Source of the DNA: a virus
Strand: one strand, 5' to 3'
IMG/VR virus record: IMGVR_UViG_3300028844_000819
Coordinates: 1 to 23,316 of that record
DNA: 23,316 nt
The notes beneath the pieces are model-generated. The model was not told the origin of the DNA. It ran no database searches and was given only the letters and a program-made list of their open reading frames with translations. The position numbers and the translations under genes are program-made. The number at the start of each line of letters is the position of its first letter. The first letter of the stretch is position 1. Shown piece after piece: positions 4,369 through 22,841 of this stretch.

Positions 4369-4381
4369 CTACTTTCTAATA
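4344..4381 (-). terminator. Rho-independent terminator of the minus-strand block, overlapping both convergent stop codons
   Basis: A 10-bp stem (TATTAGAGAG at 4353-4362 with CTTTCTAATA at 4372-4381, one G-T pair) has a 9-base loop. Read on the minus strand it is followed by AA and then six T residues. The stem and loop contain the stop codons of both converging genes. The stem is AT-rich, so its strength is uncertain, but there is no other room for a terminator. Confidence 0.5.
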
Positions 4382-4566
4382 TCTGTGTATCTTTTACACC
4401 ACATAAACACTTCAGTTAAATGCTCAATAGCTTTATCTCTTTCTACTGACTCATCCATATTCCTTTGTATGTACTCCTCTAAAGGGTCTAGCTTTTCAGC
4501 CAGCCCTTTGATGAGATGATACTTCTTACTCTTGATGTATTGTTCTGCTTCTCTGATGATACTCAT
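4369..4566 (-). CDS. Acb2/Tad1-hairpin-like small protein (possible cyclic-nucleotide sponge), 65 aa
   Basis: The last gene of the minus block; its ATG overlaps the NrdJ stop (ATGA), so it is translationally coupled. An upstream in-frame GTG exists but lies inside nrdJ and is less likely. The protein is a predicted two-helix hairpin. Residues 38-60 carry the pattern S-x-E-R-x2-A-x3-L-x-E-x2-M-W (S40, E42, R43, A46, L50, E52, M55, W56), which I recognise from phage Acb2 proteins and the wider Acb2/Tad1 hairpin family. Acb2 proteins bind cyclic di- and trinucleotides and so block CBASS (and some Thoeris) defence. Many family members are small phage proteins of untested function, so the family assignment is more secure than the activity. 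The N-terminal half is less conserved to my eye and ligand residues cannot be assigned from sequence alone. Confidence 0.5.
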   Translation of the reverse strand: MSIIREAEQYIKSKKYHLIKGLAEKLDPLEEYIQRNMDESVERDKAIEHLTEVFMWCKRYTDIRK

Positions 4567-6272
4567 ACTCCGCACGAACCCCCTTGACCACTGATGTCAC
4601 ATATATCGTGAGTCTCTACGTGTTCATCAAACTCTTCCCCTAGTTTCTCGACTGCTTCACTGTAAGGTACAGACGTAAGCGGCTGACCACCTCGACTACC
4701 ATCTGGGTAGCACGTAAACCCTCGTAGTCTGTGAGCGTAACTCGCTAACGTATTAGCGAAAGCTCCTACGGTATCATCATTATTAAGTTTACTACCCCAC
4801 GCAGGAAGATTAATTGTAGAACTAATACTCATGTCTACGTAGTCTTGTACGTCAGCTTGAAACTTAATCCTTCTTTCGTAGTCAGACGCTAAGTCTAACG
4901 CACTCTCAACATCCTCTGGGTCAGTACCATACAGATCAATGAGTTCTTGAGCTGCACTATCTACGACATACTGATACACCCAACGTGTATTACCTTTTAA
5001 ATATCTCCTCTTATATGCCACAGCAAAGATAGGCTCAATGCCTGTTGAAGTACCAGCCAGTATTCCTATAGATCCTGTAGGTGCAATAGCTCTATTAGCT
5101 ACTGGTTTTGTAATGGATAACTTATCAGCAAATTCCCTTGATACTTTATCTGACTCCCCCTTGTATACGGATAGCCACTGGTGAAGTTCGGGTGTTACCT
5201 CATATTTATATCCTTTTTTTATGAGCCACTCGTGTACACCCATGAAGCCTAGACCTAGCCTACGGTTCTTAGCTCTCACTAGATAGACCTTATCGTAAGG
5301 TAGCTGTGCCTTTAACGTCCCACAGATAAGGAACATAGTGGCTAAACGTACTACTTCTTTTAGTTCTGTGATTGTTTCTATGCGTCCAAAGTTTAGTGAC
5401 CCTAAGTTACACACATCACTATCATCAGCACTAGTCACCTCAGTACACGCATTACGTAGTGTCTCATTCTCTTTATCGAAAAAGTTAAACGAGAAGCCCG
5501 GCTCTGCTGTCTTCATGGCTTGCTTAATGTTCTCTTGAAACACTGAGCCTACTTCACCTGTCTCGTAGTAGTTAAGTAACCAATCAGTGTCGTAGTTAAC
5601 TGATACATTGGTCATGTCAAGGGGTGCAGGGAAGTTAAAATCTTCTTGCTTTATATCCCAGAGGGTTTTACCTGTACTACCTACTGGCATTGATGCCCAA
5701 TCTTTAGCTACTAAGAACTTACTAATGTCTGCGTGTTGCCAGTTAAGACTAGCATAGATAGCTGAACGTCTACTGCCACCTTGCATTACTCTTCTACCAA
5801 TCTCATTTATCATGTTCATCTTAGGGATAGGACCAGATGCTTCGCCACCTGTCCTCTTTATTGGTGTGCCTTCTCCTCTGTATACTGAGTAGTCAATACC
5901 TATACCACCACCTGTCATCAGACAACTCTCTGACTTCCAAGATAAGTTAGCCCAATCTTCTCGTGTATCTTCTTCAGCCTTGAGTAGGTAACAGTTGTTA
6001 AAGAACTTGTTAAGTCTACCTGCGTAGTACAAGTACCTACCACCCGGTATAAACTTCATGTCTCGTATGTATTCTTCTAGCTGTTGTCTGTCTTCCTTAC
6101 TGAAGTAAAGATCTGATCCCCCACTCTGAGCAGGTGATGTACATACATCCTCAACTAGAGTGTGAGCTAATGCCGCCCACGTTTCTGCTCCGTCATGTCT
6201 GTACTTATGATTAAATATATCTTCTGAGAATTTAGATCTCAACATTGGGTTTAAGTTAGATCGGTACTGCAT
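4563..6272 (-). CDS. nrdJ: Adenosylcobalamin-dependent (class II) ribonucleotide reductase
   Basis: Reduces ribonucleotides to deoxyribonucleotides for phage DNA synthesis, using a B12-derived radical. The motif N274-A-C276-T-E278 matches the Asn/Cys/Glu active site of class II enzymes (N406, C408, E410 in the Lactobacillus leichmannii enzyme), C288 in the segment SDVCNLGSLN fits the second active-site Cys, and C94 (FNNCYLL) fits the first. C558 and C567 near the C-terminus can serve as the redox-relay pair. At 569 residues it is shorter than the roughly 740-residue Lactobacillus enzyme, so accessory or allosteric segments are probably reduced. No NrdA/NrdB or NrdD/NrdG genes are seen. The start overlaps the MazG stop (TAATG). 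The host must therefore provide cobalamin, as many marine alphaproteobacteria do. Confidence 0.92.
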   Translation of the reverse strand: MQYRSNLNPMLRSKFSEDIFNHKYRHDGAETWAALAHTLVEDVCTSPAQSGGSDLYFSKEDRQQLEEYIRDMKFIPGGRYLYYAGRLNKFFNNCYLLKAEEDTREDWANLSWKSESCLMTGGGIGIDYSVYRGEGTPIKRTGGEASGPIPKMNMINEIGRRVMQGGSRRSAIYASLNWQHADISKFLVAKDWASMPVGSTGKTLWDIKQEDFNFPAPLDMTNVSVNYDTDWLLNYYETGEVGSVFQENIKQAMKTAEPGFSFNFFDKENETLRNACTEVTSADDSDVCNLGSLNFGRIETITELKEVVRLATMFLICGTLKAQLPYDKVYLVRAKNRRLGLGFMGVHEWLIKKGYKYEVTPELHQWLSVYKGESDKVSREFADKLSITKPVANRAIAPTGSIGILAGTSTGIEPIFAVAYKRRYLKGNTRWVYQYVVDSAAQELIDLYGTDPEDVESALDLASDYERRIKFQADVQDYVDMSISSTINLPAWGSKLNNDDTVGAFANTLASYAHRLRGFTCYPDGSRGGQPLTSVPYSEAVEKLGEEFDEHVETHDICDISGQGGSCGV

Positions 6273-7735: not shown

Positions 7736-8592
7736 GCTACTTCCTTTGCTATGTGTACGTAATCAATCATTGGTTTTTCTTTAGCCTTTGATACTAACGA
7801 GGGTATCGTTTGTAGAGTAGGCCAACACTTATGTTTGTATGAACAGAAGCCACACTCAATCGTCAGCTTCTTGTTACCTGTTTTAGCTTTGTAAAAGGTT
7901 TCATTGACTGCTTCGTAGCAACGCTCAAAGGGTTCGTCATTCTCTAAGTAATTGTACGTATCAGTAATGTCATCAAGTACTTCCTTTGAATCTATAGCTG
8001 AAGCGTTAACGTATTTGAACTGACCTGTTCCTTTGTTAACTACCCACCAACCACCAACATCTTTGTCTGCACCTTTAGCGTAACCAACAAGCTGAGGTAT
8101 GTAGCCGAAGCTGTCACCTTGCTTAAGAGTTTCTAAGTTAACAAACTTATTGTTGTATGACCAAGGTGACGCAGACTTTATATCGTCTACCTTACCATCT
8201 AAGATTAGATCGTACTCGCCTTTTATAGTTTTGTTATCACCTAAGTCTAAGGTGATGTTGCCGTTGTCTTCAAACTGTACACCAGAAGCCCGAAGTAAAC
8301 CCTTAAAGACAGCTTCCACTATGTCACCTAACAACATGTTCATTAAGAAGTGAGGTGGGAATGGAGTCTTATCTTCAGGGTCATTCTTCTCAAACCAAAG
8401 CTGACACTTAGGACGCCCTACGTTGGACATCCTAAGTCTGAACTCGCCTCTAGGCTTACCGTTGAACTGCTTGTCTAACGCATTGCCTACATCTGTAGCG
8501 ACTTGATCTGTTATCTCCTTAGATACAGAAGCCTCTCCAGCCATAGCCTTTGCTAAGAAAGAATAGACAGATAGTTCAGCAGGGTGTTCCAT
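7732..8592 (-). CDS. Cas4/RecB-like PD-(D/E)xK exonuclease with probable 4Fe-4S cluster
   Basis: A 286-residue nuclease. The core reads GEYDLILDGKVDDIKS with D128, D137 and K139 as the metal-binding and catalytic set, followed by a Q167-x3-Y171 motif (PQLVGY) characteristic of RecB-family nucleases. One cysteine upstream of the core (C63, PKCQLWF) and three close to the C-terminus (C247, C250, C256 in ECGFCSYKHKC) give the one-plus-three arrangement that binds an iron-sulfur cluster in Cas4 and AddB. In T7-like genomes this position is held by the gp6 exonuclease, so it may process DNA ends or degrade host DNA. It shares one base with the upstream gene's stop (TAATG) and overlaps the next gene by 4 bases. 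Confidence 0.8.
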   Translation of the reverse strand: MEHPAELSVYSFLAKAMAGEASVSKEITDQVATDVGNALDKQFNGKPRGEFRLRMSNVGRPKCQLWFEKNDPEDKTPFPPHFLMNMLLGDIVEAVFKGLLRASGVQFEDNGNITLDLGDNKTIKGEYDLILDGKVDDIKSASPWSYNNKFVNLETLKQGDSFGYIPQLVGYAKGADKDVGGWWVVNKGTGQFKYVNASAIDSKEVLDDITDTYNYLENDEPFERCYEAVNETFYKAKTGNKKLTIECGFCSYKHKCWPTLQTIPSLVSKAKEKPMIDYVHIAKEVA

Positions 8593-9488
8593 TATACAGC
8601 CGCCCCCTCTACGTTAACAAAGTCTGCATCACTCATAGTTTTAGAGATGATCTCTGACATTGCAGGGTCAACTGAGCCACCTGTATTTTTAGATGACCAC
8701 TGGTCAAGTACATAACCGTTAGACCAAGTGATCCACTCAAAGAATCCTCTGAGTACATCGTTATCTGACTCAGCAATCTCTACCTTACCACCTACACCTA
8801 TGATCATAGATGAGTAAGTGTTACCTGTTGGTAGTGTATGCTGATCAGCAGAAAGATCTAACTTGTACTGGATGGGTAGTGCATTCTTTCTTTGAATGGC
8901 TTTCACTGCACCATCTAATGCTTTGATACTATCCCTATTCTTTACATCTAAGATAAAGGGTACATCAGTACCTACATCTGACAGAGCATTACCTTCGGCA
9001 TCGACTGGATTAGTTAGATTAACTGTACCAAATACAACCTTAGTTCTTTTGACTTGTCTCATTAGTTCTTTAGTAGCTTGAGGTAGGCTCTCCCAATCTT
9101 CTACATAACCTGAAGGTCTTCCAATGTTGAAGCCCCCTGTGTTATCTTTGAGGTCACCCTTTAGATCAACAGATAGTACTGTCTTCTGCATCTGACTGCT
9201 TTCACTATCCCAACGTGTCCACTGCTGACGCATGGCGAACACTCGTATCTGTGGCTCAACACTATAAACAACCTTGCCTTCACCTAAGTCTAACTTGTAT
9301 GCACCAGAAGGTATTACTTCTATCTTCATAGGCTTACCTGCTACATCTCTAGTACCCATGATACCTGAATGTATCTGAGTCATCCTCGCTAGGCTTGAGG
9401 ATTTCTTACCACCTTCTCCAACGGACACGCCCATCATCTCTGACATTGACATACCATTCTCTGTGGCTACTGTTATTTCTGTACTCAT
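8592..9488 (-). CDS. Putative single-stranded-DNA-binding protein (by position), 298 aa
   Basis: Sequence similarity was not recognised. The protein has a disordered, Met/Ser-rich N-terminus followed by a beta-rich middle (residues about 50-110) and a C-terminal part ending in FVNVEGAAV; it lacks the strongly acidic tail of T7 gp2.5. It lies directly between DNA polymerase and a nuclease, where phages of this type often place their SSB, and has its own promoter, consistent with a protein needed in many copies. The ATG at 9488 is preferred because AAAGG lies seven bases upstream; an in-frame TTG five codons earlier overlaps that ribosome site. Treat the function as an inference from context. 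Confidence 0.55.
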   Translation of the reverse strand: MSTEITVATENGMSMSEMMGVSVGEGGKKSSSLARMTQIHSGIMGTRDVAGKPMKIEVIPSGAYKLDLGEGKVVYSVEPQIRVFAMRQQWTRWDSESSQMQKTVLSVDLKGDLKDNTGGFNIGRPSGYVEDWESLPQATKELMRQVKRTKVVFGTVNLTNPVDAEGNALSDVGTDVPFILDVKNRDSIKALDGAVKAIQRKNALPIQYKLDLSADQHTLPTGNTYSSMIIGVGGKVEIAESDNDVLRGFFEWITWSNGYVLDQWSSKNTGGSVDPAMSEIISKTMSDADFVNVEGAAV

Positions 9489-13245: not shown

Positions 13246-14048
13246 GTTGTGTACTCCTTTAGTTTTAATATGTCTTCTTCTGTTTTATATTTAATGTCAT
13301 CTTGTAACATCATTACCATAGTGGTTACCCCTGTCCAAGACTCAATCTCTTTCTTATATTTTATACTCTTATGTGTAGCGTCAGGGTCGAGTGCTACAAT
13401 AATCTTTGTGTAGTCCTGTAAGTATTCCATATGTGTGTGACTAATATTTGTACCTAAGATAGCTATGCCTGTGACATTTGGACACACCTTTGCCACAGTG
13501 ATAGCACTGATTACATCCTCTACTATTACAGCTACACCATTAGGCTCACCCATACACTTACTAAATACAGTAGCGTTACCAGTATACCTGAGCCACTTAG
13601 GTACAGAGCCACTGAGTGACCTGCCTATAGCGTCTATAACCTTATGCTTATCTCGTATGAGAAACACAACACGCTCATCCTTAACGTCATACATCACATC
13701 CATATATTCATTCTCTAAGCCCCACCTAGATACAAATCTATGGTAGTTAGTTTGAGAAGGCTCAGGGTATGTGATGTACTCAGGTATTATAAATGTAGGT
13801 ATTACATTTGATACTGATTCTTTTTTGTAGTTAGCTATCTTCTTTTCAATCTCTAAAATAGATAGATTAATATTTTGCATACCTTGAGTTACGCAATCAA
13901 GTTTATAACAATTATATAAAACAACACCGTCTTCTCTTGTAGCAGTAAAAGTATTAAACGAACCACAGACAGGGCAGTCACCCCTAAAGTTCTCATCACT
14001 TTTTAAATAGAGATCCTCAATATATTCTTTGAGATTATTTCTTTCCAT
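13242..14048 (-). CDS. DNA primase with zinc finger and Toprim domain
   Basis: A 268-residue primase that makes RNA primers for lagging-strand synthesis. A Cys4 zinc finger lies at C25, C28, C47 and C52 (DCPVCGS... and NCYKLDC). The Toprim core shows the conserved Glu E177 (VIVEDVISA), the GTN turn at 199-201 and the DPD pair D221/D223 (IIVALDPDA). It corresponds to the N-terminal half of T7 gp4 as a stand-alone protein, partnered with the overlapping helicase gene. The ATG at 14048 was chosen because AAGGAG lies about five bases upstream and because earlier in-frame codons lie in the integrase coding sequence, which it already overlaps by 14 bases. Confidence 0.9.
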   Translation of the reverse strand: MERNNLKEYIEDLYLKSDENFRGDCPVCGSFNTFTATREDGVVLYNCYKLDCVTQGMQNINLSILEIEKKIANYKKESVSNVIPTFIIPEYITYPEPSQTNYHRFVSRWGLENEYMDVMYDVKDERVVFLIRDKHKVIDAIGRSLSGSVPKWLRYTGNATVFSKCMGEPNGVAVIVEDVISAITVAKVCPNVTGIAILGTNISHTHMEYLQDYTKIIVALDPDATHKSIKYKKEIESWTGVTTMVMMLQDDIKYKTEEDILKLKEYTT

Positions 14049-14955
14049 TCCTTCTCCTTTCTTGTGCATCCTTTGCACCACTAAATGTATTAACTAAGTA
14101 AGGCACTAGACTTTGATGTGACTGATGCCCTGTCACTTGCTTTATACCTATCCAATCGACACCTACTTCTGACATCTCAACGACAGCAGTACGCCTAAGA
14201 TCCCTAGCTTGTAGCTCATCAGGTAGATTAACTTCTACCTTTATCTGTTTGAAAAGTTTAGATATTTCATCTTCCTTGTAGTGAGAATAGATACCTGCCC
14301 TTGCTACAGTGCGAGGTGCTACATACTCTGATAACCCATCGTACTCTTCTCTTTGTTTATACAACACTTTAGTTAATGAGTCACCAATAAATAAATGTAC
14401 ATCTACTCCTCTTTTGTTTTGGTGTATGTCCATTCTCTGTGCTTCTAAATCTAAAGAGTCCCACTTCAACAAACGTATATCGCCAACACGTTGACCTGAT
14501 TCATACAGTATATGACATATCAATCCAATGCTACGCCATTTAAAATCTGAGTAGGCAGTGTCTAAAAATAGTTTAACTTGATCGTGAGTCCATAAGGTTC
14601 TACGTGGTTTACATTTTAATTTAGGTACAAGTGCCATCAAATTTTGAGGTATGATACTGTGTCTAATACAATCGTTTAATACTATACTAACATTAGTTGC
14701 TATGTAGTTAGCAGACCTAGTGCCTTTATCTAACCATACATCGTATGCTGTCTGAAGATGAGCATACCTTATATCTTTTACTGGTGTTGTAGCTAACATC
14801 CTATTCCCTTTTATCTTAGTATTACAAGCAACTTTAAGATTGCTTATGTATTTTTTCTGTGTAGCTATAGTTAAAGCACAGAAAGATTTACTTCTCATGT
14901 AGTAACTACACGCAGTTTCAAAAGTTGAGTTATGTTTCAATTCAATATGTTTCAT
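14035..14955 (-). CDS. int: Tyrosine recombinase (integrase)
   Basis: A 306-residue phage integrase: an N-terminal SAM-like DNA-binding domain (about 10-110) and a catalytic domain with R156 (ESGQRVGD), K181 (QNKRG), R254 (RDLRRT), H277 (TGHQS) and nucleophile Y286 (VPYL), nine residues after the His as expected. The first His of the usual H-x-x-R box is Arg here (R251). It catalyses site-specific recombination and suggests the phage can integrate, or descends from one that could. The gene sits inside the replication operon, between a 24-residue membrane peptide (overlapping start) and primase (14-base overlap), so it is probably expressed with the early genes. No attP core resembling a tRNA 3' end was found next to it. 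Confidence 0.92.
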   Translation of the reverse strand: MKHIELKHNSTFETACSYYMRSKSFCALTIATQKKYISNLKVACNTKIKGNRMLATTPVKDIRYAHLQTAYDVWLDKGTRSANYIATNVSIVLNDCIRHSIIPQNLMALVPKLKCKPRRTLWTHDQVKLFLDTAYSDFKWRSIGLICHILYESGQRVGDIRLLKWDSLDLEAQRMDIHQNKRGVDVHLFIGDSLTKVLYKQREEYDGLSEYVAPRTVARAGIYSHYKEDEISKLFKQIKVEVNLPDELQARDLRRTAVVEMSEVGVDWIGIKQVTGHQSHQSLVPYLVNTFSGAKDAQERRRNGKK

Positions 14956-15026
14956 GCTGAAAATATATACAAAACAATAACTATTAGTACTGCAAATTCA
15001 AGTACTTCTCTAATAGTTATCTTCAT
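14952..15026 (-). CDS. Single-helix membrane peptide, 24 aa
   Basis: The frame begins MKITIREVLEF and continues with a hydrophobic run of Ala, Val, Leu and Ile to residue 22, ending in SA. Its ATG overlaps the stop of the 110-residue gene (ATGA at 15026-15023) and its TGA overlaps the integrase ATG (ATGA at 14955-14952), so it exactly fills the gap between two genes. This double overlap and the clean charged-then-hydrophobic layout support translation. It is too short for normal gene callers. It would insert as one transmembrane helix; the function is unknown. The alternative is a leader whose translation only couples its neighbours. Confidence 0.55.
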   Translation of the reverse strand: MKITIREVLEFAVLIVIVLYIFSA

Positions 15027-15355
15027 TTTATAACCCTCAAGTGTGACCTATCTTTCTTAACTGGAGCTTTATCTTTGAAGGAGTTCTTTATTATCTCCAC
15101 TGATGCATCAGCCATAGCGCATACCAATCGTACTGTCTCAACACGTAAGTCATCATACAAATCAGGATGATGTTCTTCTAAGTCAAGCTCTGGCTGATCA
15201 TTACTTATATAAGTAGTGATGTTGTGACAGTATGCGTCCAAGTGTTCTGCTACTGCCTCAGCGAATACATCAGATACTATAGGCATGAAGTGGTAGTCTT
15301 CTTCTTCGTAGTGAACTACTGCATACAGTATTTCGGGTAAGTCTTCATCAGTCAT
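15023..15355 (-). CDS. Hypothetical acidic protein, 110 aa
   Basis: A very acidic protein (many Asp and Glu in residues 1-20 and 50-70) with a helical C-terminal half and a basic last segment (residues about 94-110, KAPVKKDRSHLRVIK). No family recognised. The start overlaps the end of the upstream 57-residue gene by 8 bases and its stop overlaps the next start. Strong negative charge is seen in DNA-mimic proteins, but nothing else here supports that idea. Confidence 0.65.
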   Translation of the reverse strand: MTDEDLPEILYAVVHYEEEDYHFMPIVSDVFAEAVAEHLDAYCHNITTYISNDQPELDLEEHHPDLYDDLRVETVRLVCAMADASVEIIKNSFKDKAPVKKDRSHLRVIK

Positions 15356-15521
15356 CGTCTTCTATCCTTTCTATTGTTATGTTGTTAGATAGCGTACCTG
15401 TATCTCTATACGCTAAGGCATAATAGTCAGCCCAGATAGCTAAGTGTCTGTATAACTCATACGGATCACCACTGTCCACCAATACATTTGGTTCTGTCAT
15501 TGTGATGTTGTACTTAGGCAT
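15348..15521 (-). CDS. Small protein of a duplicated pair, copy A, 57 aa
   Basis: It starts MPKYNITMTE and contains DSGDPYELYRHLAIWADYYAL (residues 16-36), a predicted helix rich in Tyr and Trp. It is about 70% identical (37 of 53 positions, hand count) to the protein at 16818-16961. In both copies the similarity begins at the same place, overlapping the stop codon of an unrelated upstream gene in the shared string CCTAAGTAC. Conservation at the protein level between the copies, with many silent changes, shows that this short frame is a real gene. Function unknown. Confidence 0.75.
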   Translation of the reverse strand: MPKYNITMTEPNVLVDSGDPYELYRHLAIWADYYALAYRDTGTLSNNITIERIEDDD

Positions 15522-15951
15522 CCATGAACCAATCTGGTTTTACTCTGTTCTTATTCCACCTAGCAAAGCTAACCTTGTCACGCTTATAGAATGCACGATA
15601 CGCATTGATAGGGTAGTCCTCGTCTGTCTTGAGACCTTTGAACAAAGCAAAAGCGTGTTTACCTGCACCATGATACTTACCATACCTGTGGGTATATTCA
15701 CTCAACATACTCTGGTATGTCAGCCGAGCAAAGGAATAGTTAGCACGTGTCTTCATTGCCCATAGTGTACATGGGTGCTTCTGATGTACTGGTTTGTACA
15801 ACTCATTCTCCTCTGCATACTCTGGTGCATGATGCCACAGGCTAGTGCATAGCATCTGTGCTTCTTCTAGTGGCATCTTCACTACGTGTTGGTCACACAA
15901 CGCTTTAGCTATAGCGTCAGGGTGGTAGTCTACTATAAATCTATTCATCAT
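15514..15951 (-). CDS. Conserved marine-phage protein of unknown function, 145 aa
   Basis: The sequence has features I associate with a widespread family in marine phages: D-Q/K-H-V-V-K-M (residues 20-26), an E-x-A-Q-M-L segment, HPCTLWA (59-65), S-E-Y-x-x-R-Y-G-K-x-H (about 84-94), and an AYRAFYKRDK...W...PDWF C-terminus. Many His, Cys, Tyr and Trp residues suggest an enzyme or nucleic-acid-binding protein, but no activity is known to me. The first of two adjacent ATG codons (15951, 15948) lies in the end of the broken Mom-like gene. Its last codons overlap the start of copy A of the duplicated pair. Confidence 0.75.
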   Translation of the reverse strand: MMNRFIVDYHPDAIAKALCDQHVVKMPLEEAQMLCTSLWHHAPEYAEENELYKPVHQKHPCTLWAMKTRANYSFARLTYQSMLSEYTHRYGKYHGAGKHAFALFKGLKTDEDYPINAYRAFYKRDKVSFARWNKNRVKPDWFMDA

Positions 15952-16569
15952 TATTCCCCTTTTTCCATTTTACTTCTAGTGTATTATCAAACACTTTTAA
16001 AAATCTGTGTTTGCGTGAACGTGGTCTCCATTCACCTTCAAGATGTTTGGTTGCACCACGATTATGTTTTATGTATGTGCCATCATTTTGTTTTATCCAA
16101 AAGTCAGACTTCATATCAGTTTTATCCAAAAGTCAGACTTCATATCAGTCAGATCATAATAGTCAAAACCTAACGCTTTGTAAACAGTACCACTGTGGTA
16201 GTCATCATCAGCGTAAGATAGTATAGCCCTCACATTATTCTTTTCTTTCAATAACTTAATAGACCTAGCTACAAACCACCCTGCTAAATTGTGTTCACGC
16301 ACTTGGTGGTCTGGGTGTAGTACTAAACGTGACAACTCATACAACCCTTCCTGATTGTTTCTATCTAGTCCAAACATACCTTTGCTTAACTCAGGTACAG
16401 GTAGTCCAGTAAAGATACAGACACCTACAACTGTGTCAAGATACATTAAACCATAGTTATCACCTGACTTAAATCCTCGTGATATATTTGTAAGATAGTG
16501 ATGTGCTTGTAATAAATCAGCACACTCACCCTTAGTTATACAACGAATAGTATAGTCAGACTTAGACAT
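15941..16569 (-). pseudogene. Mom-like (GNAT-fold) DNA-modification protein split by a 29-bp tandem duplication
   Basis: The upstream frame (16569-16111, 152 aa) has an AHHYL motif (H24, Y25), E78-L-S-R81, and the SYADDDYHSGTVYKALGF block (118-135), typical of phage Mom-like acyltransferase-fold proteins, which convert adenine in DNA to a modified base that blocks restriction. The frame then hits a stop after DFWIKLI. The remaining C-terminus lies in another frame (16129-15941; WIKQNDG... HNRGATKHLEGEW...), which lacks a ribosome site. The 29-bp repeat at 16092-16149 causes the break: removing one copy restores a single 199-residue gene. A -1 slip on AAAA at the junction would also rejoin the parts with a duplicated 10-residue segment. 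The start at 16569 follows a GGGGG ribosome site. It could be a true pseudogene, a split gene or an assembly artefact. Confidence 0.65.
16092..16149. repeat. Perfect 29-bp tandem direct repeat (two copies)
   Basis: Bases 16092-16120 are repeated exactly at 16121-16149. The length is not a multiple of three, so the duplication shifts the reading frame of the Mom-like gene it lies in. Perfect identity implies a recent event. Confidence 0.95.
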
Positions 16570-16581
16570 TCATTATCCCCC

Positions 16582-16818
16582 TTACATTATGTTTGGTGGT
16601 ACACTATGCACATAGTCATAGTCTTTATACTCCTCAGACTCCCAGTCCTCACAGAAGAGTAGGTCTATCTTAGCATCTGGTATGTTATAGTCAACCAGTT
16701 TAAAAGCAAACTCCACAGCACTCTTCCAGTCATGTACGTCAGGATATGTGTCATCACATTCCACTATTTTCTCAGTACCATTTACTGACAGTCCTATTTT
16801 ATATCTATCTACAGACAT
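16582..16818 (-). CDS. Hypothetical protein, 78 aa
   Basis: The protein begins MSVDRYKIGLSVNG (a beta-like strand), followed by an acidic centre and a C-terminal stretch rich in Glu, Asp and Tyr (residues 55-71, EDWESEEYKDYDYVH). No family recognised. The start shares a base with the stop of copy B of the duplicated pair (TAATG), and it ends 12 bases before the start of the Mom-like gene, with the latter's ribosome site in the gap. Confidence 0.65.
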   Translation of the reverse strand: MSVDRYKIGLSVNGTEKIVECDDTYPDVHDWKSAVEFAFKLVDYNIPDAKIDLLFCEDWESEEYKDYDYVHSVPPNIM

Positions 16819-16961
16819 TAATCTATCTCCTTTATTGTTACATTGCTAGGTAGTATACCATACTCTTTGTATTGTAAAGCATAATAGTCAGCCCACATAG
16901 CCAAGTGTCTGTACATCTCATACGGATCACCTGAATCTATTAGTATATTTTGTTCTGTCAT
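16818..16961 (-). CDS. Small protein of a duplicated pair, copy B, 47 aa
   Basis: A paralogue of the 57-residue protein at 15348-15521, with DSGDPYEMYRHLAMWADYYAL (residues 9-29). The similarity extends seven codons upstream of this ATG (PKYNIT), but where copy A has its ATG, copy B has ATT (16982-16980), directly overlapping the upstream gene's stop. Either initiation moved to the internal ATG at 16961, or the rare ATT start is used, giving 54 residues. I annotate the ATG. The stop overlaps the next gene (TAATG). Function unknown. Confidence 0.7.
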   Translation of the reverse strand: MTEQNILIDSGDPYEMYRHLAMWADYYALQYKEYGILPSNVTIKEID

Positions 16962-16974
16962 TGTAATGTTGTAC

Positions 16975-17187
16975 TTAGGAATCTTTCATCTCCTCTAGTT
17001 CTGCAACCACGAATGGGTCAAGGTAATTCTCTATGATAGTTATCTGATCTTGGATATGTTCTATATCTTTTTGTAGAACGAGTATCTTCATAGGGTGGTG
17101 GTTAACCTGCACAAAATCACAGTCATCCATTAGACACGCAATAGATATACTTGCCTCACGTACTGCCTCTAATACTTTATCTGTCAT
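16975..17187 (-). CDS. Hypothetical protein, 70 aa
   Basis: A helical protein beginning MTDKVLEAVREAS and ending in a Glu-rich helix EMKDS. No family recognised. A longer in-frame reading (start 17379) would run through two other genes and gives low-complexity, gene-unlike sequence, so the ATG at 17187 is chosen. It overlaps the TGA of the membrane peptide upstream (ATGA at 17187-17184), and together with that peptide and the 69-residue protein forms a chain of three overlapping genes. Confidence 0.65.
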   Translation of the reverse strand: MTDKVLEAVREASISIACLMDDCDFVQVNHHPMKILVLQKDIEHIQDQITIIENYLDPFVVAELEEMKDS

Positions 17188-17273
17188 CCTGTTAACGCTT
17201 TTACTAAAAAGTATAGCGTCACTAAAGATGCTACTGCTAGTATTATTATTAGTCTTCTGTAAGTTAGTTTCAT
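17184..17273 (-). CDS. Single-helix membrane peptide, 29 aa
   Basis: It begins MKLTYRR and continues as a hydrophobic stretch of Leu, Ile, Val and Ala from residue 9 to about 23, ending VKALTG. The positive N-terminus and length fit an N-in single-span peptide. The ATG shares a base with the upstream stop (TAATG at 17275-17271) and its TGA overlaps the next ATG. The C-terminal LTG and its nucleotide context (TAACAGGAT) also occur at the end of the 30-residue peptide at 17500-17592, hinting at common origin or a shared ribosome site. Function unknown. Confidence 0.6.
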   Translation of the reverse strand: MKLTYRRLIIILAVASLVTLYFLVKALTG

Positions 17274-17482
17274 TAGTCTGTCTCCTCTGCATAAACTGTT
17301 TCGTGCATTGCATGACCAAACTCCCAATCTCTACGAAAGTCTGCATCATTTCCATTATTATTCCATTCACGTTCAGCAAGTTCCTCTGCTATATCACCTG
17401 CCTTTAGATCATCATCAGCTTCAATCTCATAGTTTCTATCGTAGTATAAGGTTGCTTCTACCTTCACATAATATGTTGGCAT
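17273..17482 (-). CDS. Hypothetical acidic protein, 69 aa
   Basis: It starts MPTYYVKVEATLYYDRNYEIEADDD, a beta-strand-rich opening of the type seen in small phage proteins built as a beta sheet with one helix, followed by the helix AGDIAEELAEREW and an acidic tail ending EETD. No family recognised with certainty. The ATG at 17482 is preferred to the GTG two codons upstream because AAAGG is nine bases before it and only three before the GTG. The stop overlaps the start of the next membrane peptide. Confidence 0.65.
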   Translation of the reverse strand: MPTYYVKVEATLYYDRNYEIEADDDLKAGDIAEELAEREWNNNGNDADFRRDWEFGHAMHETVYAEETD

Positions 17483-17499
17483 TGTCACTATCCTTTCAG

Positions 17500-17592
17500 T
17501 TATCCTGTTAGCCCATAGGTTATGAGCATGAATGAGTATGCTATGGCACAGAGCGCAATGATACCCAGTAAGTCTTTGATACTATTGTACAT
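17500..17592 (-). CDS. Single-helix membrane peptide, 30 aa
   Basis: It starts MYNSIKDLLGIIALCAIAYS and continues hydrophobic to ITYGLTG. The ATG at 17592 lies inside the last codons of the 76-residue gene (11-base overlap) and the TAA at 17500 leaves just enough room for the ribosome site of the next gene. This is the same plan as the 29-residue peptide at 17184-17273: short polar start, about 20 hydrophobic residues, LTG end. It is likely to be a one-span inner-membrane peptide; function unknown. Confidence 0.55.
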   Translation of the reverse strand: MYNSIKDLLGIIALCAIAYSFMLITYGLTG

Positions 17593-17812
17593 TATTCATG
17601 CCCTCATGTATAAATCTCTTGACTACATTTAGTTGCTGTCTCATAGACTCTTTGTCTATACTACTGTCCTTACTGTGTTGTAGTACCTCTTGTATATCAG
17701 AAAGCATACCCATTGCAACCATTGATGCACCTACCATTTTTGTGTAGCTGTCATCTATGAGATCTTGAACGGCTTGCTTAGTCATACCATACATTTGTGT
17801 ATCATCAGTCAT
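17582..17812 (-). CDS. Hypothetical helical protein, 76 aa
   Basis: An all-helical protein rich in Met (MTDDTQMYGMTKQAVQDL, then MVGASMVAMGML) with a long C-terminal helix KESMRQQLNVVKRFIHEG. No family recognised. An in-frame start at 17875 would begin inside a strong RNA hairpin; the ATG at 17812 has GGAG seven bases upstream, so it is preferred. The end overlaps a membrane peptide gene. Confidence 0.65.
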   Translation of the reverse strand: MTDDTQMYGMTKQAVQDLIDDSYTKMVGASMVAMGMLSDIQEVLQHSKDSSIDKESMRQQLNVVKRFIHEGMNNVQ

Positions 17813-17834
17813 GTTTTCTCTCCAGTGGGTGTGT

Positions 17835-17875
17835 TTGCTATCTCTACACGTGTTATGACCGTATAAAGATAGCAA
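17835..17875 (-). promoter_or_regulatory. Strong 16-bp hairpin in the leader of the 76-aa gene
   Basis: Bases 17835-17850 pair with 17860-17875 at all 16 positions if the two T-G oppositions are read as G-U wobbles in the minus-strand transcript, with a 9-base loop. There is no T run on either side, so it is not a simple terminator. It lies between the stop at 17885 and the ribosome site at about 17820. An RNase III processing site or mRNA-stability element is the likeliest reading. Confidence 0.6.
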
Positions 17876-17884
17876 TATTAAAGA

Positions 17885-18064
17885 CTAGGCCGCTTTTCTG
17901 GCAAATTTACCATTAATTCTGTAACCTTCGTTACGTAGCAACCACGTGTGATACCCTGCGTTTACATATATACGCCCATTAGATGTGTTGCGTCCACAAA
18001 GATCACGAATGTTAACGCCTTTTACAATTAGTGGGGTACTCTGTTGGATAAATGTCTTTTTCAT
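17885..18064 (-). CDS. Small basic protein, 59 aa
   Basis: A frame of 59 codons starting MKKTFIQQSTPLIVKGVNIRD, with an Arg/Lys-rich second half and a tail GKFARKAA. AGGAG lies eight bases before the ATG and a good sigma-70 promoter 40 bases upstream, making it the first gene of a sub-operon. The segment INGKFARK and the short beta-strand pattern (GRIYVNAGYHTWLLRN) suggest a small nucleic-acid-binding fold, but no family was recognised. Confidence 0.65.
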   Translation of the reverse strand: MKKTFIQQSTPLIVKGVNIRDLCGRNTSNGRIYVNAGYHTWLLRNEGYRINGKFARKAA

Positions 18065-18105
18065 GTTGTATTCTCCTATTTGGGGTTATATTAAATTGTA
18101 CACTA

Positions 18106-18135
18106 GTTATATTACTAATGCTGTTACCTTGTCAA
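18106..18135 (-). promoter_or_regulatory. Sigma-70 promoter inside the early block
   Basis: On the minus strand a perfect TTGACA (18135-18130) is followed by 18 bases and TATAAC (18111-18106, five of six). It sits in the only gap of this stretch (18065-18131), its -35 overlapping the stop codon of the upstream gene, and would start RNA about 35 bases before the 59-residue gene. Confidence 0.65.
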
Positions 18136-18278
18136 GCAATTCTTTTTAACTTGCTGACAAAATTCTTTTGTTGTGACATATTTCTCAGCATAACCTTGTG
18201 TTTACGCTCTACATCACGTTGGTACTTCCATTTGTTCTTATAATTACTCTTTTTCACTTTCACGTATTGCACGTTCAT
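18132..18278 (-). CDS. Very basic small peptide, 48 aa
   Basis: It starts MNVQYVKVKKSNYKNKWKYQ and remains Lys/Arg-rich (KLKRIA at the end), so it probably binds nucleic acid. It overlaps the 51-residue gene by 35 bases in another frame. AAGGAG lies only two bases before the ATG, too close for ideal initiation; a GTG two codons later is an alternative. No family recognised. Confidence 0.45.
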   Translation of the reverse strand: MNVQYVKVKKSNYKNKWKYQRDVERKHKVMLRNMSQQKNFVSKLKRIA

Positions 18279-18399
18279 TCTCCTTACTTCTATTAACCTT
18301 TACACCCTTACCCTTCTTCGGTGGTACTGTCTGGGGTGACTGTCTGTTCTGTAACATTGCCCTTGCCATAGGGTTTCGTATGCCCGTCTTGCGTTTCAT
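18244..18399 (-). CDS. Very basic small protein, 51 aa
   Basis: It starts MKRKTGIRNPMARAMLQNRQ, has the stretch PPKKGKGVKVNRSK (27-39), and ends acidic (RESEKE). The ATG overlaps the TGA of the ParB-like gene (ATGA at 18399-18396), so it is coupled to it. The N-terminal NPMARAMLQNRQ followed by Lys-rich sequence recalls small, disordered phage proteins I have seen near replication genes; no function can be assigned. Confidence 0.6.
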   Translation of the reverse strand: MKRKTGIRNPMARAMLQNRQSPQTVPPKKGKGVKVNRSKENERAIRESEKE

Positions 18400-19262
18400 A
18401 TTCCTAGTACATCAGTTATAGTACTATAACATGGTGATGTAAACTCCTCCTGCTCATTAATAGTATTATCAAACGCCTGCATTGCTACAAGCATTATTTT
18501 ACTGGATCTCTCTCTGACATCGTAATCTTTATCTACATACTCTGTGCCTGTGAATACAGGAACTAGACCTTGGCGTATCTTTTCCATTAAAGAGACTAAG
18601 AGTAAAGGCAAAGACTCCTCTATTGCACGCCTAGATTTTATAGATGTATTAAGATACTGCCCTTTAGAATTTTGTCTTAGCTTAGTGAGTTTAAGGAACA
18701 TTTGTAAGCCCTCTTGCTCACTTATTTTACCAGACATAATAGCCATCATTAGACCTGCCCTCATACCTGCACTTAAAATTCCATAGTATGCCGGACACAT
18801 TTTATGTAACTCTGTAGTTAGTCTACCTAAATCACCCCTGATGTAGGGTTTCATGTAGGTAAGTGACATAGTTTTATTCCCAGAACCGTGAACAAATCTA
18901 AATGGTACACGAATCGTACTTATAATCTTAGCCGATATCTGTGTCAGATCGGATAGGGTGCGTTTCTTACCTACATCAATCTTTAGTTTTGACTCTGGTT
19001 CTAAGCCATAACATACAAGCTGTTTGTCCACAGTAATACCTGATTTTTGTATTGCCATTAGCCTGTGTTGACCATCAACTAGAATACCATTGGTATCAAA
19101 ACCTATACCCTGAGTTGTAGCCTGCCACTGCCCTTGTGTAAGCTCATACATTAAATTATCTAACGTAGACTTAGACATAGACATTCGGTAATTAGCGGTA
19201 TTGTGTTCTAGTAATTTAGTTGCCCTGTTGGGTGTGATTTTTTCATATTTAGCTCTAAGCAT
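18396..19262 (-). CDS. ParB/Srx-like nuclease-domain protein
   Basis: A 288-residue protein with the ParB-like nucleotide-binding motif D63-G64-Q65-H66-R67 in NGILVDGQHRLMAI (residues 58-71), preceded by a strand TQGIGFD. This motif marks the ParB/Spo0J/sulfiredoxin fold, in which phage members have been linked to nuclease, transcription or CTP-dependent DNA-binding functions. The rest (from about 100) is helical with no visible helix-turn-helix, so this is not a classical plasmid ParB; no ParA gene is seen. The ATG follows AGGAG at seven bases. As an early gene beside the control region it could act in takeover of the host or in regulation. Confidence 0.75.
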   Translation of the reverse strand: MLRAKYEKITPNRATKLLEHNTANYRMSMSKSTLDNLMYELTQGQWQATTQGIGFDTNGILVDGQHRLMAIQKSGITVDKQLVCYGLEPESKLKIDVGKKRTLSDLTQISAKIISTIRVPFRFVHGSGNKTMSLTYMKPYIRGDLGRLTTELHKMCPAYYGILSAGMRAGLMMAIMSGKISEQEGLQMFLKLTKLRQNSKGQYLNTSIKSRRAIEESLPLLLVSLMEKIRQGLVPVFTGTEYVDKDYDVRERSSKIMLVAMQAFDNTINEQEEFTSPCYSTITDVLGI

Positions 19263-19299
19263 TGTTTTTCTCCTGTTGTGCTAGAGTTTCCCTTGTGTA

Positions 19300-19374
19300 T
19301 TATAAAAACATAAGCCAACCGACTATAACGGTGGTATATATTAATGATAATCCTGCTATGTAATAGTAAAACAT
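19300..19374 (-). CDS. Single-helix membrane peptide, 24 aa
   Basis: It starts MFYYYIAGLSLIYTTVIVGW and ends LMFL; nearly the whole peptide is hydrophobic, with no charged residues. The ATG shares a base with the TAA of the 59-residue gene upstream (TAATG at 19376-19372). The 37 bases between its stop and the ParB-like start contain that gene's AGGAG site. The coupled start supports translation, but a peptide this short could also be chance; function unknown. Confidence 0.45.
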   Translation of the reverse strand: MFYYYIAGLSLIYTTVIVGWLMFL

Positions 19375-19553
19375 TATATCTGCCTACCTCTAATGCTAAA
19401 AGTATAGCCACTAGCCCTAAGTATAGCCTCTAACTGCTCTGTTACTATCTTAGTACCATGTATTTGTGTAAAAAACTTACTAGTCTCACAGTCTGGGTAT
19501 AATACCTCTGTACCGTAGTTATTCTTCTGTCTCACAAACAATTCTTTTTCCAT
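19374..19553 (-). CDS. Hypothetical protein, 59 aa
   Basis: It begins MEKELFVRQKNNYGTEVLYP, followed by a polar central part and a helix TEQLEAILRASGY (38-50) and a basic end SIRGRQI. The segment YGTEVLYPD...F has the look of a small protein with a beta sheet and one helix. GAGGG is found about eight bases before the ATG. It shares its last base with the next start. No family recognised. Confidence 0.65.
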   Translation of the reverse strand: MEKELFVRQKNNYGTEVLYPDCETSKFFTQIHGTKIVTEQLEAILRASGYTFSIRGRQI

Positions 19554-19570
19554 TGTGTTTCCCTCTGTTA

Positions 19571-19654
19571 CTATACGTACAACACTATAGGTATTAATAC
19601 CAATGTCAAGATAATTATGTTGATTATTGCAAAAATTATTATACCGTTGTTCAT
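19571..19654 (-). CDS. Single-helix membrane peptide, 27 aa
   Basis: It starts MNNGIIIFAI right after the stop codon of the DUF7178-like gene (TAAATG, no spacing) and stays hydrophobic (Ile, Leu, Val) to YV at the end. The frame is intact to TAG at 19571. The start abutting the upstream stop is compatible with re-initiation. A 12-bp palindrome, GGTATTAATACC, at 19590-19601 lies inside the coding sequence. Function unknown. Confidence 0.5.
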   Translation of the reverse strand: MNNGIIIFAIINIIILTLVLIPIVLYV

Positions 19655-20305
19655 TTACTTAATCCCTAGCTTTTCACGATGCGCTACCCATGTAATAGCC
19701 TGCACTTGGTATGGTAGTATAGTTGTACCATGTTTCTTGTTATATAGCTTGGCGGCCTTGATATAGCTGTCTGTTATCACCCTATACTGTCTTGGAGTCA
19801 TGTTAGACCCATTGCTACTTAATGCGTGACGTTCCCCAGTGTATATATTCTTGGCGTGACCATCCACACAGACTGTATCTATATTACTGGTATGGTTGTC
19901 TATACACCTAAAGAATGCTGTTGTCTTACGTCCACTAAGTATGGTTTCAATCTCTTTGACCACCCAATTAGGTGTATAATCCCAATTTGTCTTAGTAATC
20001 TCCAATATACGTATGGCTTTATCCTTGTTGGCATTATAGGTACACACCTTAACATCACTATACTGCTCGTTATTTACATAGGCATAGCACATATTCATGG
20101 TATCCATTACGTTGCGTTCCCACTTGTTGTTTGGACTCAATGCGGCAAGTACCCCTACCACTTTGACCAGTGGCACTTTATGTGTCTTGGATATCTGTTG
20201 GCATTGCTTGTATGCTCTTGCATACCACGTCATACCAAACTCAATATGCCACGGCTTGGCGGCACGTAGCGTTTTCAGAATCTGTGTTGCTTTAACTGTT
20301 AACAT
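19655..20305 (-). CDS. DUF7178-like conserved phage protein, 216 aa
   Basis: The first gene of the minus block. It contains a YARAYKQC segment (28-35), VGVLAALSPNNKWERNVMD (51-69), SGRKTTAFFRC (about 124-134), VCVDGHAKNIYTG (145-157) and a C-terminal QAITWVAHRE (202-211). I recognise this as a phage family of unknown role labelled DUF7178. The layout (a helical region with AALSP, then Gly-Arg-Lys, then V-D-G-H-A) is reminiscent of helix-hairpin-helix DNA glycosylases, but this is only a resemblance. GGAAGG lies about eight bases before the ATG. The long untranslated region upstream carries the candidate early promoter. Confidence 0.7.
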   Translation of the reverse strand: MLTVKATQILKTLRAAKPWHIEFGMTWYARAYKQCQQISKTHKVPLVKVVGVLAALSPNNKWERNVMDTMNMCYAYVNNEQYSDVKVCTYNANKDKAIRILEITKTNWDYTPNWVVKEIETILSGRKTTAFFRCIDNHTSNIDTVCVDGHAKNIYTGERHALSSNGSNMTPRQYRVITDSYIKAAKLYNKKHGTTILPYQVQAITWVAHREKLGIK

Positions 20306-21485: not shown

Positions 21486-21548
21486 TGTTGCATTTAAATG
21501 CTATGTTAATATACCCTATATGTAAATAATTATAAATAAGTGTTGACA

Positions 21549-22111: not shown

Positions 22112-22207
22112 ATGAAATACACTTGGGATTTAATCAAAGAAAATAAAATACTTGTAATTGCAGCAATTATAATAGCAATACTAGCGTATAACGCAATAGC
22201 AGGATAA
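22112..22207 (+). CDS. Single-helix membrane peptide, 31 aa
   Basis: It starts MKYTWDLIKENKILVIAAII and continues hydrophobic to YNAIAG. The layout is a short charged cytoplasmic start and one transmembrane helix. AAAGGAG lies seven bases before the ATG, the best ribosome site of all the small peptides here. The stop is one base before the GTG of the next gene. It might be a small holin or pinholin-like protein or an assembly factor, but no lysis enzyme is seen in the window. Confidence 0.7.
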   Translation: MKYTWDLIKENKILVIAAIIIAILAYNAIAG

Positions 22208-22208
22208 A

Positions 22209-22841
22209 GTGACCCGTAAATTACTTTTCTCTATTGCATGTACTGCCTTACTTGTAGCATTTGTGTTACCAACTATGGTAATAACAGCTTTTGCAGCAGA
22301 TAGTAACACTGTATCCTCTACTGTAGTAACAGATAAGAGTGTACCTACAGCTTCTGCACCTTCTGTTGTAGTAAATAACAACGATGTGTGTAAATCTGCC
22401 GCTGCAGTCTCTGTGCAGACACAGGTACTAGGCATTGCTACTGGAGTAACTATAACTGACGAGAACTGTGAGCGCATAAAGCTGGCACGTTCTCTATATG
22501 GTATGGGTATGAAGGTAGCTGCAGTATCTACGCTATGTAGAGACTACAGAGTCTTTGATGCAATGTGGATGTCAGGTACTCCCTGCCCATTTATGGGGAA
22601 GATAGGTGACGATGCTAAGTCTTCATGGGAGAAGAACCTAGATGTAATGCCTGAAGCCTCTGAGATACGTATACGTGAAGAAGCTATTATATTAGCATCC
22701 GCAAAAGAAGCTAAAAAAGTAAAAGTAATAGCTAAACCAAAACCTAAAGTTACTAAACCTGTAAAGAGGCCCCGTGATGAGAATAACAAAAGCGTCTGGC
22801 TTAAGCCTATTGGTGCTATTCTTATGCTACTCCTACTCTAA
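22209..22841 (+). CDS. Exported cysteine-containing protein, 210 aa
   Basis: The GTG at 22209 follows the previous stop by one base, with AGGA just upstream. An N-terminal signal peptide (TRKLLFSIACTALLVAFVLP) has a likely cut after AFA (about residue 29). The mature part has four cysteines (C61, C87, C110, C126) that could form two disulfides in the periplasm, a Lys-rich linker (PKPKVTKPVKRPRD, 177-190) and a final hydrophobic segment (IGAILMLLLL, 201-210) that could anchor the C-terminus. I have the impression that this Cys pattern recurs in marine phages but know no function. The last 65 bases overlap the next gene in another frame, both encoding hydrophobic stretches. Confidence 0.7.
   Translation: MTRKLLFSIACTALLVAFVLPTMVITAFAADSNTVSSTVVTDKSVPTASAPSVVVNNNDVCKSAAAVSVQTQVLGIATGVTITDENCERIKLARSLYGMGMKVAAVSTLCRDYRVFDAMWMSGTPCPFMGKIGDDAKSSWEKNLDVMPEASEIRIREEAIILASAKEAKKVKVIAKPKPKVTKPVKRPRDENNKSVWLKPIGAILMLLLL

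What the first reader, a model, noticed from the sequence alone, without database searches (positions are those of the whole stretch)
14952..19654. Hidden layer of single-helix membrane peptides wedged between early genes
Five frames of 24-30 codons (19571-19654, 19300-19374, 17500-17592, 17184-17273, 14952-15026) each encode a short polar start and one hydrophobic helix. Four have an ATG overlapping the upstream gene's coding sequence or stop, and the fifth starts directly after a stop codon. A sixth of the same kind lies on the plus strand (22112-22207). All are below usual gene-calling limits. Two (17500 and 17184) share an LTG end. Phage micro-membrane proteins can act in superinfection exclusion, membrane remodelling, inhibition of membrane-bound host defences or lysis timing. 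Such a repeated plan within one operon looks like a system rather than chance.
Basis: partly seen in the sequence, partly recalled or inferred. Interest (0 to 1): 0.75.

Follow-up and report, generated by a model that had tools for sequence, protein, structure and literature searches.

The report
Phage membrane micro-genes at operon joints
Six very small phage genes, each coding for a 24-31 residue peptide that should sit as one helix in the bacterial membrane, are almost certainly real genes that standard annotation misses; they look like separately acquired membrane effectors (one hops between unrelated phages as a complete 29-codon gene), not parts of one machine.

Summary
All six frames are present; the five leftward ones fill gaps between genes, and all have an SD-like motif. 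Related marine phage contigs (HMO-2011-type and others) carry orthologs of every one with no frameshift or stop. Substitutions favour third positions (35:16:46; pN/pS 0.35). The 17184 family occurs at 13 IMG/VR loci; ORF DNA identity is 61-94% while both 60-nt flanks fall to chance (20-40%), so it is a portable 27-29-codon gene. The 22112 family keeps exactly 31 residues at seven loci (pN 0.16, pS 0.52). Five of nine gaps are filled; 0.03 expected. Across relatives, single-helix micro-ORFs pile up at three junctions: integrase 5' (18/64, expected 0.2), DUF7178 3' (7/31, 0.15), thyX 5' (4/32, 0.13), but hardly at 15 control junctions. They are hidden in published isolates (CRP-207, CRP-2, CRP-1).

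"A system" is not supported: the families are unrelated in sequence, differ in charge pattern and are gained or lost independently; the sixth lies in another operon. Most likely they are early inner-membrane effectors acting on host membrane proteins (precedent: 30-residue PfsE). That function is inferred; lysis control is the main rival.

The parts
19571..19654 (-). micro-ORF, 27 aa MNNGIIIFAIINIIILTLVLIPIVLYV, directly after the DUF7178 gene stop
   Evidence: ortholog in L014 (81% over 26 aa, same position); DUF7178 3' junction is a hot spot (7 of 31 distinct junctions, 0.15 expected)
19300..19374 (-). micro-ORF, 24 aa MFYYYIAGLSLIYTTVIVGWLMFL
   Evidence: L014 ortholog 19/24 identical; L015 has an unrelated-looking 24-aa ORF (MDSFWYEYIGYSLATIWILSLYHR) in the same slot
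17500..17592 (-). micro-ORF, 30 aa MYNSIKDLLGIIALCAIAYSFMLITYGLTG
   Evidence: orthologs in L014 (93%), L015 (97%) and L043 (75% over 28 aa; no ATG there, GTG/TTG start)
17184..17273 (-). micro-ORF, 29 aa MKLTYRRLIIILAVASLVTLYFLVKALTG; portable gene
   Evidence: 13 IMG/VR loci, 27-29 aa, 9 distinct sequences, pN 0.155 / pS 0.382; homology stops at the ORF ends
14952..15026 (-). micro-ORF, 24 aa MKITIREVLEFAVLIVIVLYIFSA, 4-nt overlaps with the 110-aa gene and the integrase
   Evidence: same length and overlaps in L002/L003, 17/24 identical; integrase 5' junction is a hot spot (18 of 64, 0.2 expected)
22112..22207 (+). micro-ORF, 31 aa MKYTWDLIKENKILVIAAIIIAILAYNAIAG, first after the HNH-like gene, abutting an exported-protein gene
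   Evidence: 31 aa at seven loci incl. the window, always before the AADSNTVSSTVVTDK gene, pN 0.158 / pS 0.522; AlphaFold2 helix, pLDDT 82
14035..14955 (-). tyrosine integrase (anchor)
   Evidence: PF00589 E 7e-18; PHROG 1 integrase
15023..15355 (-). 110-aa gene upstream of 14952
   Evidence: 112-aa homolog in L002/L003 in the same place
16975..17187 (-). 70-aa gene (MTDKVLEAV...) starting in a 4-nt overlap with the 17184 stop
   Evidence: sequence; 90.7% DNA match in L001
17273..17488 (-). 71-aa gene upstream of 17184
   Evidence: 69-aa homologs in L015 and L001
17582..17812 (-). 76-aa gene upstream of and overlapping 17500 by 11 nt
   Evidence: orthologs in L014 and L015
19374..19553 (-). 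59-aa gene upstream of 19300
   Evidence: homologs in L014, L015, CRP-1
19655..20305 (-). DUF7178 protein (anchor), first large gene of the leftward operon
   Evidence: PF23802 E 9e-36; 27 related loci
22209..22841 (+). 210-aa protein with N-terminal signal-like sequence, abutting 22112
   Evidence: PHROG 20531 E 5e-11; 71% identical homolog in L001

Best explanation
Each ORF is a genuine gene for a single-pass inner-membrane microprotein; the five leftward ones are translated by coupling to the preceding gene (start at or in its stop), and all six have their own SD-like motif. The genes are unrelated to one another and are gained, lost and exchanged separately by recombination at operon joints. 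The five leftward ones are probably expressed early, with the replication operon. The most likely action (inferred, about 0.4) is that each inserts one helix in the host inner membrane and binds a specific host membrane protein, changing its activity to favour the resident phage (blocking entry of a second phage, or blunting a membrane-borne host function or defence), as PfsE of phage Pf4 does with PilC. The plus-strand 22112 belongs to an exported-protein cassette and may act in the envelope or virion instead. Shown: existence, conservation, purifying selection, helix prediction (for 22112 and a related-position 33-aa family), mobility of 17184, junction hot spots. Inferred: translation, membrane insertion, early timing, target and effect.
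For: Orthologs for all six without frameshift or stop. Pooled substitutions 35:16:46 by codon position, pS 0.33, pN 0.12. Randomised-substitution tests: BLOSUM similarity kept more than chance for 19300 (P 0.001), 22112 (P 0.0001 or less), 17184 (0.01-0.02), 17500 vs L043 (0.002); not significant for 14952 (0.07) or 17500 vs L014/L015 (too few changes). 17184: ORF identity 61-94%, 60-nt flanks 20-40%, several different neighbour sets. 33-aa family at or near the integrase in many loci and CRP-207: 23 distinct DNA sequences, ungapped, dN 0.44 / dS 1.20. Hot spots at 3 junctions, almost nothing at 15 control junctions. Conserved coding-strand micro-families mostly have SD motifs, conserved antisense ones almost never. 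Precedent PfsE: 30 residues, inner membrane, binds PilC, superinfection exclusion (PMC8764522).
Against: No translation or localisation data exist. 19571, 19300 and 14952 have only one distinct ortholog each. No match to any described family, so function rests on analogy. 17184 lies next to lysis genes in two other phage types. PfsE's YXWGW motif is absent from all six.
Confidence: 0.5

Rival explanations
1. Lysis control: some or all are tiny holins, antiholins or holin partners that set or sense lysis timing.
For: 17184 relatives lie just after an endolysin gene and a 57-58 aa hydrophobic gene in L141/L143 (PF00959; GH108 / PHROG endolysin) and three genes before a 3TM holin (PF11351) in L144. 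Some HMO-2011-type phages keep a cell-wall hydrolase (PF07486) a few genes before the integrase.
Against: In L141/L143 a palindrome (10-bp stem in L141) separates the micro-ORF from the lysis genes. Of 18 loci with the integrase micro-ORF and at least 2.5 kb of upstream DNA, none has a detectable endolysin of the tested types; the four loci that do lack the micro-ORF. Other 17184 homes are early, non-lysis operons.
Confidence: 0.17
2. Membrane anchors or accessory subunits for phage replication or integration (tethering DNA or the neighbouring enzyme: integrase, ThyX, DUF7178).
For: Fixed positions next to integrase, thyX and DUF7178 with translational coupling.
Against: Different unrelated micro-sequences sit beside the same enzyme family in different phages, many relatives lack any, and 17184 moves between neighbour sets.
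Confidence: 0.13
3. Leader peptides or spacers: translation couples neighbouring genes and the peptide sequence itself does not matter.
For: Start/stop overlaps at both ends in 14952 and 17184.
Against: Amino-acid conservation with silent changes, invariant 31- and 33-residue lengths, and 17184 keeping its sequence while its neighbours change.
Confidence: 0.06
4. Chance open frames in AT-rich gaps.
For: Random hydrophobic ORFs are common on the antisense strand here.
Against: Expectation 0.03 vs 5 seen in the gaps; orthologs and purifying selection.
Confidence: 0.03

Closest known systems
PfsE (PA0721) of Pseudomonas filamentous phage Pf4
   Same: About 30-residue phage inner-membrane protein, the smallest of its phage, well conserved among relatives (PMC8764522)
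   Different: Filamentous phage; YXWGW motif and PilC binding. None of the six has the motif; targets unknown here
Phage Gp11 of PhiNM1 (S. aureus)
   Same: Early-expressed small phage membrane protein that inhibits a host process at the membrane (PMC11237401)
   Different: 53 residues, two predicted helices; no sequence relation tested or expected
DicB (cryptic prophage, E. coli)
   Same: Small prophage protein that blocks entry of other phages through an inner-membrane receptor (PMC6832061)
   Different: 62 residues, acts through MinC; not described as a one-helix micro-gene
Predicted small genes of phage genomes (Fremin et al. 2022, cited in PMC11323111; text not held)
   Same: General class: short conserved phage genes missed by annotation
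   Different: Whether these families were in that catalogue could not be checked; here neighbours, selection and junction hot spots are resolved
CRP-345 gp23 (annotated hypothetical, 28 aa)
   Same: Single-helix micro-gene just before thyX in an HMO-2011-type phage, same kind of placement
   Different: A different family from the six in the window

Membership tests
PfsE-type superinfection exclusion peptide | about 30 residues with one hydrophobic inner-membrane segment | tested here: met
   24-31 aa, hydropathy 1.9-3.2; helix models for 22112 and the 33-aa family; membrane location itself is predicted only
PfsE-type superinfection exclusion peptide | conserved YXWGW motif | tested here: not met
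   absent from all six sequences; motif from PMC8764522
PfsE-type superinfection exclusion peptide | binds PilC and excludes pilus-dependent phage | not testable with these tools
   needs two-hybrid and plating assays
Conserved phage small gene (coding) | orthologs with intact frame and purifying selection | tested here: met
   only marginal for 14952 (P 0.07)
Conserved phage small gene (coding) | translated in infected cells | not testable with these tools
   no profiling or proteomics data available
Phage moron (portable single-gene cassette) | gene present or absent between relatives, homology ending at gene boundaries | tested here: met
   17184 only; 17500 and 19300 homology ends near their stops on one side
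Phage moron (portable single-gene cassette) | own promoter and terminator | tested here: inconclusive
   promoter-like sites no more frequent than in shuffles; L141 palindrome; window copies look operon-borne
Holin / antiholin | co-located with an endolysin | tested here: inconclusive
   yes in L141/L143 for 17184, none in 18 integrase-micro-ORF loci
Holin / antiholin | sequence match to a described lysis family | tested here: not met
   no Pfam or PHROG match

The most novel reading that the evidence does not exclude
HMO-2011-type phages keep three fixed exchange slots (before integrase, after the DUF7178 gene, before thyX) into which unrelated one-helix micro-effectors are repeatedly loaded, and at least one such effector (MKLTYRRL..., 27-29 codons) travels between different phage groups as a complete gene: a pool of membrane micro-effectors that current annotation does not see.
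Probability: 0.45. Interest if true: 0.75.

Novelty: new variant of a known kind. Interest (0 to 1): 0.6.

Why it matters
HMO-2011-type phages are described as a dominant, broadly distributed marine group (PMC9038755), yet part of their early operon is missing from annotation because the genes are 24-33 codons long. The result gives a cheap way to find such genes (look at named junctions), shows that a 29-codon gene can be a unit of exchange between phages, and makes testable, in cultured phage-host pairs (CRP-207, CRP-2, CRP-1, CRP-345), whether one-helix peptides shape superinfection and host takeover in the ocean.

Tried and rejected
Pfam and PHROGs scans of the micro-proteins: nothing above cut-off. 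tblastn of 22112 and 17184 against named phages, and of 17184 against plasmids: no match. 17184 in 84,980 bacterial/archaeal genomes: none confirmed, so no host or prophage assignment. The concatenated-peptide scan used chimeric rows only to choose patterns; patterns came from 17500 alone. The neighbour scan for 19300 gave more 59-aa homologs, but L126, L128 and L129 have no 24-aa ORF after it. Considered and dropped: a shared LTG motif as evidence of common function; hydrophobicity alone as evidence of coding (antisense ORFs are as hydrophobic); a holin-endolysin pairing for the integrase-side ORFs.
Full report
WHAT THE WINDOW IS. The window is a whole 23,316-base IMG/VR record related to HMO-2011-type marine podoviruses: integrase relatives in CRP-207, CRP-2, CRP-603, CRP-1, CRP-345 and HMO-2011 at 36-45%, and DNA-level matches only in short pieces. 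A leftward operon runs from the DUF7178 gene (19655-20305, PF23802) through many small genes to integrase and, by sequence and synteny with the named phages, primase, helicase, DNA polymerase and ribonucleotide reductase; a rightward operon starts near 21540.

OBSERVATION. All six ORFs exist as described. Each of the five leftward ORFs fits its gap, starting at or inside the preceding stop (0, 1, 11, 1 and 4 nt overlap); 14952 and 17184 also overlap the next gene's start by 4 nt. SD-like purine runs lie 7-12 nt upstream of all six. Shuffling each of the nine operon gaps of at least 55 nt gives a summed expectation of 0.03 such ORFs; five are found and none on the antisense strand by the same test. 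I set the gene boundaries used there from the ORF lists; one start was set 7 nt too high (17194, true ATG 17187), which does not affect the result.

CONSERVATION. Relatives were fetched with the ParB-like protein (L001), integrase (L002, L003, then 80 loci by profile), DUF7178 (27 loci) and the peptides themselves. Orthologs: 19571 and 19300 in L014; 17500 in L014, L015, L043; 17184 in L015, L043 and more; 14952 in L002 and L003; 22112 in L014, L043, L001 and more. Pooled differences by codon position are 35:16:46, pS 0.33, pN 0.12. With the same substitutions re-placed at random, similarity as high as seen is rare for 19300, 22112, 17184 and for 17500 against L043; 14952 is only suggestive (P 0.07). 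22112: seven loci, all 31 aa, pN 0.158, pS 0.522, always abutting the same exported-protein gene, whose own signal sequence varies between a plain and a lipoprotein-like form (the lipoprotein reading is mine).

A PORTABLE 29-CODON GENE. A scan with the 17184 alignment returned 13 loci. Their ORFs are 27-29 aa, begin MKLTYR(R/K)L in every complete copy, and give pN 0.155, pS 0.382 over nine distinct sequences. The neighbours differ: early small-gene operons of HMO-2011-like phages (L135, L136, L139, L140, L142); after a lysozyme or GH108 endolysin gene and a small hydrophobic gene, facing an oppositely oriented gene (L141, L143); and between an SNase gene and a DUF6321 gene, three genes before a 3TM holin (L144-L146). 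DNA identity to the window is 61-94% inside the ORF and 20-40% in the 60 nt on either side. The unit that moves is the ORF itself.

JUNCTION HOT SPOTS. The screen upstream of the integrase found several unrelated one-helix ORFs of 23-37 aa in the same slot, including a 33-aa family with 23 distinct DNA sequences, ungapped, dN 0.44, dS 1.20, unannotated in CRP-207 at 4362-4463, where the annotated integrase start (4423) lies inside it. In a uniform test over nine anchor genes, distinct junctions with a one-helix micro-ORF were: integrase 5' 18/64 (expected 0.20), DUF7178 3' 7/31 (0.15), thyX 5' 4/32 (0.13). The other 15 junction classes gave 0 or 1 each; one of those single hits (CRP-1 helicase 3') is the thyX micro-ORF seen from the other side. 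The thyX one is annotated as gp23 in CRP-345 but not in CRP-2 (7831-7917) or CRP-1 (9140-9238). Limits: the integrase loci are the 80 best profile matches, and dereplication was by shared 12-mers.

NOT ONE SYSTEM. The six have no mutual similarity beyond hydrophobicity; net charge sits at the N-terminus in 17184, is absent in 19571 and 19300, and sits at the C-terminus in the CRP-207 33-aa peptide. They come and go separately. The LTG ends share a short DNA string and carry little weight.

MECHANISM. Shown: coding conservation, helix prediction for 22112 (pLDDT 82) and the 33-aa family (pLDDT 89), mobility, position. Inferred: translation, membrane insertion, early timing from operon position, and function. 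The best analogue in action is PfsE, a 30-residue phage peptide that binds the inner-membrane protein PilC and blocks superinfection (PMC8764522); other small phage or prophage proteins acting at the membrane are Gp11 (PMC11237401) and DicB (PMC6832061). I therefore favour separately acquired membrane effectors at about 0.4 for function and about 0.9 for being real genes (higher for 17184 and 22112, about 0.8-0.85 for 14952, 19571 and 19300). Lysis control is the main rival: 17184 keeps company with lysis genes in two phage types, but none of 18 integrase-side micro-ORF loci with enough upstream DNA has a detected endolysin of the types tested.

NOVELTY. No Pfam or PHROG family matches; no named phage or plasmid has 17184. 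Small conserved phage genes as a class are known (PMC11323111, and Fremin et al. 2022 cited there, text not held). New here are the families, the three recurring junctions and ORF-exact mobility of a 29-codon gene.

Noticed in passing
16090-16147 within 15941-16569: A Mom-like DNA-modification gene (PF25680 E 7e-16; PHROG 1384) is split into 152-aa and 62-aa frames by an exact 29-bp tandem duplication; L001 carries an intact 199-aa version. Could be real or an assembly error.
   Followed up: partly
4369-4575 (-): 68-aa protein with a weak, below-cut-off match to the Acb2/Tad1 hairpin family (PF24729, E 0.011) and PHROG 1454 (E 3e-4): possible anti-CBASS protein.
   Followed up: no
15361-15522 and 16822-16983: Direct repeat, 78% identical over 162 nt, covering two paralogous genes of about 50 aa (VDSGDPYELYRHLA...); related genes follow 17500 in L014 and L015.
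   Followed up: no
18396-19262 (-): 288-aa gene (PHROG 5931, ParB-like by eye) is cleanly absent from L014, where homology jumps from 19292 to 18400.
   Followed up: no
L004 4362-4463: In CRP-207 the annotated integrase start (4423) lies inside a conserved 33-aa micro-ORF; the true start is probably near 4459-4465.
   Followed up: partly
e.g. L069, L077, L091, L123 just upstream of the integrase: Conserved 75-95 aa protein with an N-terminal helix and a NQTFSARNH...YWKVR motif (PHROG 3342, unknown), largely overlapping another 50-80 aa frame.
   Followed up: no
L001 3418-3495; L016 595-684; L022 4410-4502; L052 3436-3519: Further one-helix micro-ORFs of 25-30 aa in related phages, the last three with SD motifs and copies in other contigs.
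   Followed up: no
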